This document shows positions 1 through 22,278 of a DNA stretch of 64,000 nt, one piece after another. Under the pieces are notes generated by a model that saw only the letters and a program-made list of their open reading frames with translations, was not told the origin of the DNA and did no database searches. Source of the stretch: an uncultured Muribaculaceae bacterium (lineage in GTDB: Bacteria > Bacteroidota > Bacteroidia > Bacteroidales > Muribaculaceae); the NCBI GenBank assembly GCA_947627615.1, contig CANQWS010000003.1:1-64000 (forward strand), written 5' to 3'. The position numbers and the translations under genes were made by a program. Each line of letters starts with the position of its first letter. Position 1 is the first letter of the stretch.

Positions 1-923
1 CCCTGAGCACAACTCACTGAAGCCCCTTTTTGACTACCTCGGCGTTTAGGGTGACGCAATGACGAAGTCAGGAAATATGGAGGTAGGGAAGTCAGAGAAT
101 CGATGCTTTTTTTTAGGTTGATTTCGGCGGGGATGTTTCCGATAAGGGAATTTTCTGAGGCTGCTTCTTTGAATAGGTTTACATATTTGACCTGATGACT
201 GGAATTGTCATTTTCGGTGCGTTTTCGGTGTGCGATGACGAGAGATGTCTGTACCTGAGCATCGTTGCCGAACCATCGACGGTTGGAATCCACAATTATA
301 TAGTCCGTCACAAACAGTTTTTCCATCAGATTGGCCAATGGGGTGGAGTATTCTCTGTTCATCCAGCTTGTGGGTACCACCAGAGCCAGTTTGCCATCCC
401 GTTTCAACATTATTATGCACAGAATCCATGAGAAGATTGAAAGGTCGGCATAATTGGAGATATTTTCAATTGTGTTTTTTATAAGTTTTTTCTCTCCGGC
501 AGATATGTATTGTGCTTTTTCAAGTATTGAAATCAGATTGCTTCTGATTATATCATGGGTGACATGAAATCCGCCGGATTTTTCATGATTAAGAAGTTCT
601 CTTCTGACGAACGGGGGATTTGTGACAGCAAGGTCAAAACCGTTGGCATGATTCAGTCCGGACAAGGTCTTGGGATCAAAGGCATTGCCTGTGATTATAG
701 TGGATTCAGGAAATCTTTCTGAAGCAGTCTTTGCGATTTCCGGATCTATTTCTATTCCATAGGCGCTGATATGATGTCCGCTGAGAGGTGAAAACATATC
801 GCCTGTGCCGCACATAGGGTCAATGGCTGTATGAACCTCGGTAAGATCCAGAAAAGAGAATAATAGTCTCGGAATCATCTTCCCGGAAAATATCTGGCCT
901 AATATTTTGGCTTTAGATAACAT
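1..923 (-). CDS. N6-adenine DNA methyltransferase (3' part outside window)
   Basis: Open from an ATG at 923 to the left edge, so only the N-terminal ~307 residues are seen. The Rossmann core of an S-adenosylmethionine-dependent DNA methylase is clear: an SAM-binding motif I (DPMCGTGDMF, near residue 36) and the catalytic motif IV TNPPF, which marks the N6_Mtase type that methylates adenine. The ATG lies inside the end of the upstream methylase gene (11 bp overlap), so the two are co-transcribed and probably belong to one restriction-modification or phage-defence locus that continues to the left. Which system cannot be told from here. Codon use is more AT-rich than in the core genes to the right, which suggests acquisition by transfer. 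Confidence 0.82.
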   Translation of the reverse strand, partial: MLSKAKILGQIFSGKMIPRLLFSFLDLTEVHTAIDPMCGTGDMFSPLSGHHISAYGIEIDPEIAKTASERFPESTIITGNAFDPKTLSGLNHANGFDLAVTNPPFVRRELLNHEKSGGFHVTHDIIRSNLISILEKAQYISAGEKKLIKNTIENISNYADLSIFSWILCIIMLKRDGKLALVVPTSWMNREYSTPLANLMEKLFVTDYIIVDSNRRWFGNDAQVQTSLVIAHRKRTENDNSSHQVKYVNLFKEAASENSLIGNIPAEINLKKSIDSLTSLPPYFLTSSLRHPKRRGSQKGASVSCAQ

Positions 924-2889: not shown

Positions 2890-6432
<3,543 letters not shown>

Positions 6433-20402: not shown

Positions 20403-20877
20403 TCATTCCCTACCTCCCTTTCGGTAATCAACGCGTGCCTTATACATCTGTTCCTTTATCCCGCCGTTCTTGACGAAGTCGCTCTGCAGTCTGTCAAGGA
20501 GTTTGCGCAGAAACACATCGGTCTGATGAATGAGTGTTATCGCAATGTTGGCGATGGTCTCGGGTGTGCGCTGGCGTATTGCTTCCATATAAAATTGCGA
20601 GTCATTGTGCCGTGTACAGACTTGTCTCGCTTTCAAAGCCTTTTCAGAACTGACATCCCATTTCGCCATGCCACGCACCCGGAGAGAATCCTCATAGTCC
20701 AGCAGTAGTTCCTGCAGGCTTGCCCGCGCCACATTTATAAGTTTGGTCGATGGTGCGGTCTCCTTTGTCAAGATAGCTGTGGGCGAAATAATAAGTGATA
20801 TCATAGATGCACTCAGTTTTCTGGAAAGCTATCAGATTTCGGTAATTACCTTTTTTAGGAAGGAAAGTGTCGGCCAT
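20403..20877 (-). pseudogene. Four-helix-bundle suffix domain protein, broken by an internal deletion
   Basis: Residues 1-45 (MADTFLPKKGNYRNLIAFQ.., ..YFAHSYLDKGDRTIDQ) read in one frame; the rest (KLINVARASLQELLLDYED ... IANIAITLIHQ) reads in another. In the Bacteroidales family these parts are joined by a conserved stretch of the type MVQAARSGKQNI..TSKETEI, which is absent here. A deletion of roughly 80 bp (my estimate from the remembered family layout) with a frame change at about 20745-20750 explains it. The family is related to the 23S rRNA intervening-sequence four-helix bundle proteins; role unknown. A degenerate 9-bp repeat lies upstream at 20914-20949, as is usual for these genes. 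Confidence 0.72.
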
Positions 20878-20949: not shown

Positions 20950-21100
20950 AAAGTTCCAGTCCTTTGTGCTTTGCATCTAAGCCTCTGACATCAATGCCAG
21001 GAGACATGCTAAACGCAAAGCCACGAATTATTTATTGTAAAGCAATCTAAATCACCCCAAATCTTGCGTGACGCAAAGCCAATGCGGAGAAAATCCCCCG

Positions 21101-21126
21101 TATTCACCGCAAATTTGCGGTGAATA
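21101..21126. promoter_or_regulatory. 26-bp perfect palindrome, candidate operator for the Fic gene
   Basis: TATTCACCGCAAA joined head to head with its exact complement TTTGCGGTGAATA, 37 bp before the fic ATG. Contains two ACCGCAAA half-sites that recur at the start codon (21155-21178). A smaller palindrome TTGCGT-G-ACGCAA lies at 21064-21076. Confidence 0.65.
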
Positions 21127-21154
21127 TTTGGCCGTTTCCCCGCATTTCCCTACA

Positions 21155-21178
21155 TTTGCGGTATGAGAAGACCGCAAA
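21155..21178. promoter_or_regulatory. Inverted half-sites flanking the fic start codon
   Basis: TTTGCGGT (21155-21162) and ACCGCAAA (21171-21178) flank 8 bp that contain the ATG at 21163. They are the same half-site as in the palindrome at 21101-21126, in the opposite relative orientation (tail to tail). Part lies in coding sequence (codons for Arg-Pro-Gln), so a bound protein would block initiation; an RNA hairpin over the start is the alternative. Confidence 0.6.
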
Positions 21179-22278
21179 GACATAGCCCTTATATCTGGCA
21201 GCGAAACGATTGGCCGGAATTCAGATGGAATGCCGAGGCATTGCTTGGGCCAATGTCGCGTATCAGTCAGTTGCATGGGCTTTTGAATGGCCGCATGTCA
21301 ATGCTTGGCTTTGATGAGAAAAGCCGGACATTGCTTTCCGCCATGACTGATGATCTGATAGGTTCTTCTGAAATTGAAGGCGTGTCGCTTGACCATGATT
21401 CGGTGCGGAGCAGTATTGCCCGGCGCCTTGGAATTGATGATGACGGATTGCCGGTTGAGGACCATTATGTCGAAGGACTCGTCGATGTGATGCTTGACGC
21501 TGTGCGTAATTGTGGGGAGCCGTTGACGGATGAACGGTTGTTAGGATGGCATGCGGCCCTTTTCCCTCTGGGCAGAAGCGGAATGCACCGTATCACGGTA
21601 GCCGGCTGGCGGAAAGGTGAAGAACCCATGCAGGTCGTTTCCGGAGCTTTCGGACATGAGAAGGTCCATTATGAGGCTCCGTCTTCGGCTGTTGTTCCGG
21701 ATGAGATGGCGCGTTTGACTGACTGGTGCAACAATGCCGGACTGTCGCCTTTTATCATGGCGGCAGTGGCACATCTCTGGTTCGTGACCATACACCCGTT
21801 TGATGACGGCAATGGACGTATCGGCAGGACCCTCGCCGACATGCTGCTGGCTCACCTCGATGTCGATTCTGTCCGTTATTACAGCATGTCGGCTGAAATA
21901 AACCGAAACAAGAAGGCTTATTACGAAATTCTTGAACGGACCCAGAAAGGCGACCTCGACATTACAGAATGGCTCCTGTGGTTTTTCGATTGCCTTGAAA
22001 AAGCCATCACCCGGGCATCAGGTCTCATTGAGCTGACGTTGGATAAGGCTGCTTATTGGAATCGGTTCCGTCAGGTCGAGATAAATGAGCGGCAGCGAAA
22101 AGTCATCAACCGAATTTGGGATGGCTTTGAGGGAAAACTGACCACGTCAAAATGGGCCAAAATCTGCAGATGCTCTCAGGATACGGCTTTGCGCGACATC
22201 AATGACCTTATCTCAAAGGGCATGCTTCGCAACAGCGGTGAAGGCGGCCGCAGTGCCAACTACCTTCTCCCGCAATAA
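21163..22278 (+). CDS. Fic-domain protein (class II, with own inhibitory helix) and C-terminal winged helix
   Basis: A 371-residue AMP-transferase-type protein. The N-terminal domain (about 5-100, IWQRNDWPEFRWN, DUF4172-like) carries the inhibitory motif S68-xxx-E72-G73, whose glutamate blocks ATP in class II Fic proteins. The Fic core has the full catalytic motif HPFDDGNGRIGR with His211. The C-terminal ~60 residues (SKWAKICRCSQDTALRDINDL then a KG..RNSGEGGRSANY wing) form a winged helix likely to bind DNA. All active-site residues are present. Upstream and over the start codon lie four copies of an ACCGCAAA half-site, so autoregulation by the winged helix is a good guess. The target of AMPylation is unknown. 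Confidence 0.9.
   Translation: MRRPQRHSPYIWQRNDWPEFRWNAEALLGPMSRISQLHGLLNGRMSMLGFDEKSRTLLSAMTDDLIGSSEIEGVSLDHDSVRSSIARRLGIDDDGLPVEDHYVEGLVDVMLDAVRNCGEPLTDERLLGWHAALFPLGRSGMHRITVAGWRKGEEPMQVVSGAFGHEKVHYEAPSSAVVPDEMARLTDWCNNAGLSPFIMAAVAHLWFVTIHPFDDGNGRIGRTLADMLLAHLDVDSVRYYSMSAEINRNKKAYYEILERTQKGDLDITEWLLWFFDCLEKAITRASGLIELTLDKAAYWNRFRQVEINERQRKVINRIWDGFEGKLTTSKWAKICRCSQDTALRDINDLISKGMLRNSGEGGRSANYLLPQ

What the first reader, a model, noticed from the sequence alone, without database searches (positions are those of the whole stretch)
21064..21178. Four ACCGCAAA half-sites frame the promoter and start codon of a Fic gene: likely autoregulatory operator
Two half-sites make a perfect 26-bp palindrome at 21101-21126, and two more flank the ATG itself at 21155-21178 in the opposite relative orientation. 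The encoded Fic protein ends in a winged helix, so it can plausibly bind these sites. Pairing one site upstream with one over the start codon suggests looping or stepwise repression, and Fic activity could be tied to the operator state. I know of no described Fic system with this layout.
Basis: partly seen in the sequence, partly recalled or inferred. Interest (0 to 1): 0.7.

Follow-up and report, generated by a model that had tools for sequence, protein, structure and literature searches.

The report
Self-regulating Fic gene with tandem operator
A solitary bacterial gene for a protein-tagging enzyme (Fic) appears to carry its own on/off switch, a doubled DNA site that the enzyme's own DNA-binding tail probably reads, and in related bacteria the site has changed in step with that tail.

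Summary
The half-sites and the perfect 26-bp palindrome exist and are far from chance. The reading needs correcting. In 37 promoters (the window and 36 orthologues) both palindrome half-sites (29 and 28 of 37) and a third one before the -7 box (27 of 37) are conserved; the octamer in codons 3-6 is not (4 of 37), and the one at the -7 box is mostly promoter TTTG. The fixed geometry is an outward pair, TGCGG-N19-CCGCA: 120 at 23-25 bp, none in other orientations. So the operator is two abutting 33-bp inverted repeats, 21081-21113 and 21114-21146, and the palindrome is their seam. The second covers the -33 box; the -7 box ends 4 nt before ATG, so the mRNA may be leaderless. Over 164 Fic promoters the protein stretch that best covaries with operator words is the recognition helix; control DNA shows nothing there. 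N344 goes with CCGAA instead of CCGCA in 24 of 24, three origins. Best explanation: autorepression by the Fic protein's own winged helix. The kind is known (CccR); the tandem operator and specificity code appear new. Coupling to Fic activity is inference.

The parts
21081..21113 (.). Operator unit O1, 33-bp inverted repeat (core TGCGGAGA...TTCACCGCA), -82 to -50 from the predicted start
   Evidence: second list; exact core match at 21083-21111; outer half-site conserved in 11 of 37 promoters, inner in 29 of 37
21114..21146 (.). Operator unit O2, 33-bp inverted repeat (core TGCGGTGA...TTCCCCGCA), -49 to -17, covers the -33 box
   Evidence: second list; exact core match at 21116-21144; half-sites conserved in 28 and 27 of 37 promoters
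21101..21126 (.).
   Evidence: geometry
21127..21130 (+). -33 promoter element TTTG, inside O2
   Evidence: sequence; TTTG-N19-21-TAnnTT in 28 of 37 promoters
21151..21158 (+). -7 promoter element TACATTTG (consensus TAHHTTTG); predicted start of transcription is the A of the ATG, 21163
   Evidence: sequence; rule G at -5 from PMC6847099; spacing of box to ATG 4 nt in 30 and 5 nt in 4 of 37 promoters
21155..21178 (.).
21163..22278 (+). Fic gene, 371 aa: DUF4172 (res 10-91), Fic domain (res 121-229), C-terminal winged helix
21364..21381 (+). Codons of SSEIEG (res 68-73), the inhibitory (S/T)xxxE(G/N) motif of a class II Fic protein
   Evidence: sequence; motif as given in PMC10628234; E72 and G73 invariant in 33 homologues
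21793..21828 (+). Codons of the Fic motif HPFDDGNGRIGR (res 211-222), intact
   Evidence: sequence; alignment; motif as given in PMC10628234
22177..22215 (+). Codons of the recognition helix (res 339-351), in the protein stretch that covaries with the operator

Best explanation
A solitary class II Fic gene represses itself. Fic dimers bind, through their two C-terminal winged helices, 33-bp inverted-repeat units TTTGCGGnGAATA-N7-TATTCnCCGCAAA. Two such units abut upstream of the -7 box (21081-21113 and 21114-21146), so two dimers can sit side by side; the one on O2 covers the -33 box and spacer of the sigma-ABfr-type promoter and blocks RNA polymerase. When Fic protein is scarce the promoter fires and makes a transcript that starts at or next to the AUG. 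Supported by comparison: the sites, their geometry, their conservation, their covariation with the recognition helix, and that exact unit cores in this genome lie only at its two Fic genes. Inferred: direct binding, dimer stoichiometry, repression rather than activation, leaderless start. Further inference, less certain: DNA binding favours the dimer and so lowers AMPylation, as reported for the homologue CbFic2.
For: Half-sites h1, h2, h3 with <=1 mismatch in 29, 28, 27 of 37 promoters (window included), reversed-pattern control 0. 120 outward pairs at 23-25 bp, 0 in the other three orientations. In a scan of 361 protein windows over 164 promoters, windows within 335-349 rank first for covariation with repeated upstream words at k=5, 6, 7 (partial r 0.41, 0.30, 0.27; best window ending before residue 330: 0.21, 0.15, 0.11); DNA from -260..-150 or from inside the gene gives r between -0.03 and 0.01 for window 338-348. 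These windows hold the recognition helix of the AlphaFold model (339-351; mean pLDDT 90.1). N344 goes with TTCGGnGA in 24 of 24; 1 of 140 other rows has that class. N344 needs 3 changes on a tree of residues 10-325, and the operator class goes the same way in 2.9 of 3 independent pairs on average. Exact unit cores in the 3.36 Mb genome: 3, all at the two Fic genes; reversed control 0 (row G000). O2 is followed by the -7 box at a fixed offset (37) in 15 of 20 close class A promoters with a unit. Precedent: CccR represses its own promoter.
Against: No binding or expression data. 8 of 37 promoters lack h1 at <=1 mismatch, O1's outer half-site is kept in only 11 of 37. A search for even-centred palindromes beat all but at most 1 of 100 shuffles in only 22 of 37 close promoters, 11 of 64 at 45-69% identity and 0 of 6 below 45%. 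Columns 22 and 278, outside the helix, also covary (0.31 and 0.24 at k=5), so lineage effects are not wholly removed; one of five permutations had its weak maximum (0.094) at window 339. K/R339 goes with class C in only 11 of 29 and the link is weak on the tree (same way in 1.2 of 3 pairs). 19 of 164 promoters fell in no word class. At <=2 mismatches the unit has 28 places in the genome against 8 for the control; 24 of the 28 are not at Fic genes, so weak further targets are not excluded. Codons 2-9 show no coding-type constraint, so the start rests on the kept ATG (34 of 37).
Confidence: 0.83

Rival explanations
1. The sites belong to another, chromosomal transcription factor that controls the Fic gene together with other genes.
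For: Short symmetric sites could be read by a commonplace factor; 16 of 30 exact-unit loci fetched from relatives have no Fic gene beside them; at <=2 mismatches the unit is commoner in this genome than its control, 28 against 8.
Against: Operator changes track the Fic recognition helix more than any other part of the protein; exact unit cores in this genome lie only at its two Fic genes; the Fic-less units seen share no common downstream gene by eye.
Confidence: 0.06
2. The Fic protein binds these sites but activates, or only tethers itself there, rather than repressing.
For: O1 lies wholly upstream of the promoter (-82 to -50), where activators often sit (general knowledge); for CbFic2 its authors consider that DNA binding may serve proximity to a target (PMC10628234).
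Against: O2 covers the -33 box and spacer; in 14 of 40 distant class A promoters with a unit, a unit overlaps a -7-like box; CccR is a repressor.
Confidence: 0.08
3. One reading: two pairs, one upstream and one over the start codon, acting by looping or stepwise repression.
For: All four octamers are in the window as stated; the 21155 octamer overlaps the -7 box and could add affinity in this one genome.
Against: The codon 3-6 octamer is kept in 4 of 37 promoters, the 21155 one as TGCGGnGA in 0 of 37; spacing 15, not 24.
Confidence: 0.03

Closest known systems
CccR of Yersinia pseudotuberculosis (PDB 7XUX; PMC9755527: abstract and passages seen)
   Same: Fic domain plus C-terminal DNA-binding domain; represses its own promoter through inverted repeats near the promoter boxes (AGATAATCAT-N26-ATGATAATCT; DNA-binding helices 70.2 A apart); dimer needed
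   Different: Distant in sequence (phmmer E 1.6e-7; 21-22% identity in the fold match). One widely spaced repeat, not two abutting units; other half-site; a T6SS effector, which was not tested here.
CbFic2 of Coxiella burnetii (PDB 8CIL; PMC10628234: abstract, passages, part 1 of the discussion and part 1 of section 15 seen)
   Same: Closest solved structure (E 1.5e-96; 42% identity over the model), same DUF4172-Fic-wHTH order and inhibitory motif; DNA-induced dimer with a switch to deAMPylation
   Different: Its authors used random DNA and leave a specific site open; its reported target is host histone H3
SoFic of Shewanella oneidensis (PDB 3EQX, 3ZCN)
   Same: DUF4172 and wHTH as stated in PMC10628234; fold match
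   Different: 18-19% identity; DNA binding not shown according to PMC10628234
Fic/Doc toxin-antitoxin operons (recalled; listings only)
   Same: An autoregulated operator in front of a Fic-fold enzyme
   Different: No partner gene found here: the inhibitory motif is inside the protein and no neighbour is conserved among 20 loci

Membership tests
DUF4172-Fic-wHTH proteins (class II Fic) | DUF4172 domain N-terminal to Fic domain | tested here: met
   Pfam DUF4172 7.3e-29 at 10-91, Fic 5.1e-16 at 121-229
DUF4172-Fic-wHTH proteins (class II Fic) | Intact Fic motif and N-terminal inhibitory (S/T)xxxE(G/N) | tested here: met
   HPFDDGNGRIGR at 211-222 and SSEIEG at 68-73 in the sequence and alignment
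DUF4172-Fic-wHTH proteins (class II Fic) | C-terminal winged helix-turn-helix | tested here: met
   AlphaFold model, helices 309-319, 328-335, 339-351 and two short strand pieces; match to 8CIL over 366-367 columns
Autorepressing Fic proteins (CccR type) | Inverted repeats over the gene's own promoter | tested here: met
Autorepressing Fic proteins (CccR type) | The protein's own HTH reads the repeats | tested here: inconclusive
   Strongly indicated by covariation but binding itself cannot be tested here
Autorepressing Fic proteins (CccR type) | Repression of its own promoter in the cell | not testable with these tools
   needs a reporter or RNA data
Autorepressing Fic proteins (CccR type) | Secretion by T6SS, FtsZ as target | not tested
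   no T6SS or target search was made
Fic toxin-antitoxin operons (class I) | Separate antitoxin gene beside the Fic gene | tested here: not met
   no conserved neighbour (ORFs of 80 aa or more, up to 3 kb each side) among 20 loci; 7 scattered matching pairs. Smaller partners were not sought.
sigma-ABfr promoters of Bacteroidota | TTTG at -33 and TAnnTTTG at -7 | tested here: met
   TTTG 21127-21130, N20, TACATTTG 21151-21158; 28 of 37 promoters have TTTG-N19-21-TAnnTT; consensus from PMC6847099 and PMC7366714

The most novel reading that the evidence does not exclude
The gene plus its 66-bp double operator is a one-gene, self-contained toxin-like module: operator-bound dimers are the safe (deAMPylating or idle) state and free monomers the active state, so the operator is at once repressor site and part of the antidote. 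The module moves between unrelated chromosomal places as operator plus gene only, and it re-tunes operator and recognition helix together (a specificity code at residues 339, 340, 344 and 347), perhaps to stay insulated from sister copies. Operators left behind in Fic-less relatives would be scars or decoys.
Probability: 0.2. Interest if true: 0.8.

Novelty: new variant of a known kind. Interest (0 to 1): 0.56.

Why it matters
Relatives of this protein are common: 86 of 397 genomes of the family at E<=1e-40 and 108 of 393 of the order at E<=1e-60. For the closest studied relative, CbFic2, random DNA was used and a specific site was left open (PMC10628234). This work gives a concrete site, its geometry and a predicted residue-to-base code, so specific DNA binding, its effect on AMPylation versus deAMPylation, and autorepression become directly testable with a protein of a gut bacterium, and the natural variants give a ready set for recoding tests.

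Tried and rejected
Start-codon pair as operator: rejected. The 26-bp palindrome as the dimer site: set aside in favour of the 33-bp unit, because the outward spacing is fixed (117 pairs at exactly 24) whereas the inner spacing of the palindrome is 9 or 10. That is inference from spacing; a dimer on the palindrome is not excluded. A wider regulon: the palindrome at <=3 mismatches has 4 places in the genome, two at the Fic genes and two with 3 mismatches elsewhere, control 0. The unit at <=2 mismatches has 28 places against 8 for the control; 4 are at the two Fic genes (3 exact, 1 with one mismatch), and the other 24 (two with one mismatch, 22 with two) were judged by eye only and not followed. 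A partner gene: none conserved, but two adjacent ORFs near the Fic gene of L014 recur near the second copy in L059, and one ORF near the window's gene recurs near that of L025. Nucleotide similarity of the window to 37 orthologues begins at 21072-21107 in 30 of 37 and ends between 22229 and 22286. No half-site within 120 nt downstream except in 1 of 38.

The word classes A-F were chosen after looking; the scan does not use them. Of 190 loci with a hit, 168 promoters were distinct and 164 usable; dropped were L002, L050, L056, L066. From I had 30 loci from the tool (the window among them) and 40 by place (the genome's second copy among them), 29 new loci from the tool and 60 by place; the other listed matches were not read. 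In one search the first printed coordinates (21101, 21134) are a slip of my script by 20; its second list and one search are right. In one search the tally per promoter scored classes A and B only. Leaderless start: no test beyond spacing and the kept ATG.

Literature searches cover open-licence PubMed Central papers only; nothing in their listings, and none of the passages I read, names this operator or a code. That does not show that none exists. The review PMC12894286 (passages) adds no autorepressing Fic protein beyond CccR in the passages seen.

Full report
Where it is. The window is contig C3 of a 3.36 Mb genome. The nearest named relatives are mostly Muribaculaceae or Bacteroidales assemblies. 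A genome of the same genus (G206) has its Fic gene at the same place of a contig of the same length, 20161, as a record titled Paramuribaculum sp. (L003), so the window is probably from that genus (inference).

Observation. The four octamers and the palindrome are in the sequence as described. The palindrome 21101-21126 is the only perfect one of 18 bp or more in 64 kb; none of 300 Markov windows had one of 26 bp.

The gene. 21163-22278 codes for 371 aa with DUF4172 (7.3e-29) and Fic (5.1e-16). The closest solved relative is CbFic2, 8CIL (1.5e-96). The AlphaFold model (mean pLDDT 90.1, pTM 0.85; residues 1-6 under 50) ends in a winged helix with recognition helix 339-351 and matches 8CIL over 366-367 columns (TM 0.83-0.85). 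The Fic motif and the inhibitory motif are intact. This genome has a second copy, 82% identical, on contig C12.

Promoter. TTTG (21127-21130), 20 bp, TACATTTG (21151-21158) fit the consensus TTTG/TAnnTTTG of sigma-ABfr (PMC6847099 and PMC7366714, passages read). In Flavobacterium johnsoniae the final G is -5, which puts +1 on the A of the ATG. The gap between box and ATG is 4 nt in 30 and 5 nt in 4 of 37 promoters (looser box than, where the strict box with 4 nt was met in 25 of 37). In B. thetaiotaomicron only about 3.7% of leaders are under 10 nt, so a conserved leaderless arrangement would be unusual. It is a prediction: codons 2-9 show no coding-type constraint.

Conservation. In 37 distinct promoters (the window and 36 orthologues of >=69% identity with >=120 nt upstream), half-sites with <=1 mismatch at the fixed place (plus or minus 1): outer O1 11, h1 29, h2 28, h3 27; the -7/ATG octamer as TGCGGnGA 0 and as TTTGCGG 19; the codon 3-6 octamer (no shift allowed) 4; reversed-pattern controls 0 throughout. 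A plain search for even-centred palindromes is less clear-cut: at most 1 of 100 shuffles as good in 22 of 37 close promoters, 11 of 64 at 45-69% identity and 0 of 6 below 45% (odd-centred ones not counted).

Geometry. Among half-site pairs in promoters of word classes A to E (139 of the 164 usable), the outward orientation at 23-25 bp occurs 120 times and the other three orientations 0 times. By promoter: 20 of 26 close class A (window included), 40 of 68 distant class A, 22 of 25 class B; classes C, D, E (20 promoters) were not scored for this. The consensus of 27 units from 19 close promoters is ttTGCGGtGAAtAtttg...taTTCaCCGCAAA. In the window two units abut exactly, 21081-21113 and 21114-21146; the palindrome is their seam. 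Two units in a row are not universal: of the close class A promoters with a unit, 12 have one and 8 have two by exact cores. A -7 box follows the last unit at offset 37 in 15 of 20 close class A promoters with a unit and at 37 or 38 in 16 of 22 class B; in 14 of 40 distant class A promoters a unit overlaps a -7-like box instead. Where the box can be placed, the unit lies on or against the core promoter, which speaks for repression.

Who reads it. For 164 promoters I compared repeated upstream words with protein identity in sliding 11-residue windows, holding the identity of the rest of the protein constant (12979 pairs under 80% identity at k=5 and 6; 155 promoters and 11616 pairs at k=7). The top windows are 339-349 (k=5) and 335-345 (k=6 and 7), the recognition helix and the turn before it. 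The same scan with DNA at -260..-150 or inside the gene gives nothing at the helix. Single columns: 344 is first at k=5 and 6 and second at k=7, 339 first at k=7; but columns 22 and 278 also score, so some lineage signal remains. Residue table: N344 with class B (TTCGGnGA) 24 of 24, against 1 of 140 without N344. K/R339 with class C (TGCrACGA) 11 of 29, against 0 of 135. All 3 class E (TGACG) promoters have A340, but so do 6 others. 5 of 6 class D (TGCGTAGA) promoters have K347; the sixth, L032, has a single word only; K347 also occurs in 24 class A rows and 9 others, so K347 alone does not dictate class D. On a tree of residues 10-325 N344 needs three changes: a clade of 22, L173, and by count L065, whose place was in the cut part of the output. 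The operator class goes with N344 in 2.9 of 3 independent pairs on average, class D with K347 in 2.6 of 3, class C with K/R339 in 1.2 of 3; with so few pairs the sign test cannot reach 0.05. The Fisher p values ignore relatedness and are not used as evidence. The N344 link is thus firm, the rest of the code suggestive.

Regulon. The palindrome (<=3 mismatches) lies at the two Fic genes and two poor places. Exact unit cores: 3, all at the two Fic genes; at <=2 mismatches 28 places against 8 for the control, so weak further targets are not excluded. The operators of the two copies are of the same word class and both helices read SQDTALRDIND, so cross-repression between the copies is likely (inference).

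A portable single gene. 86 of 397 genomes of the family hold a relative. Among 20 loci 7 neighbour pairs matched at 1e-10: three between L014 and L059 (two adjacent ORFs), two between the window and L025 (one place), one each for two others; there is no common context. Similarity of the window to 37 orthologues starts at 21072-21107 in 30 of 37 and ends between 22229 and 22286, around the stop codon at 22276-22278. Exact units occur in 33 of 297 family genomes (reversed control in 4 by my reading of the list). Of 30 unit loci fetched from that search 14 hold a Fic gene or part of one by tblastn at 1e-4 and 16 do not. Nine of the 16 look by eye like real operators; one of these (L214) and one of the 14 (L224) carry only short Fic remnants (26 and 27 residues). 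They look like scars of lost genes.

How it probably works. A dimer on O2 blocks RNA polymerase, a second on O1 steadies it, and low protein lets the promoter fire. The 23 bp between the recognition cores of a unit are about 78 A on B-DNA (arithmetic), near the 70.2 A between DNA-binding helices reported for the CccR dimer, whose footprint also has widely spaced repeats. CbFic2 data (AMPylation as monomer, DNA-induced dimer with deAMPylation) suggest that operator binding may also quiet the enzyme; nothing here tests that.

Verdict. Ordinary in kind (a self-repressing Fic-HTH protein is on record), new in its tandem 33-bp operator, its place against a probably leaderless Bacteroidota promoter and its natural specificity code, so far as the searches named in Tried and rejected can tell.

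Noticed in passing
L198, L199, L206, L210, L214, L215, L216, L219, L220 (units listed): Operator-like 33-bp units in intergenic regions without a Fic gene in the fetched stretch; L214 keeps 26 codons of a lost Fic gene. Scars, decoys or sites for another gene.
   Followed up: partly
L224:1249-1425: A unit beside only the last 27 or so codons of a Fic gene (81% identity): most of the gene is gone.
   Followed up: partly
L059 (second Fic copy of the same genome, contig C12): An 82% identical second copy with an operator of the same word class; two adjacent ORFs downstream (about 4337-6417, minus strand) recur near the Fic gene of L014 (53% and 38% identity); not identified.
   Followed up: partly
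L026, L027, L028: Distant relatives (37%) carry a different palindrome, GAGCCGATTA...TAATCGGCTC, twice between the promoter and the ATG in L026 and L027, with a different helix (KATATRD).
   Followed up: partly
L142, L154, L161: Relatives with helix HRDTARRD have TACGGCA/ACGTCA-like words instead of TGCGG, outside the word classes used.
   Followed up: no
L002:3001-4113: The Fic reading frame of this 84% orthologue stops early, so the gene is broken or misassembled there.
   Followed up: no
window 20403-20804 (minus): A 133-aa ORF upstream on the other strand; not searched against any library.
   Followed up: no
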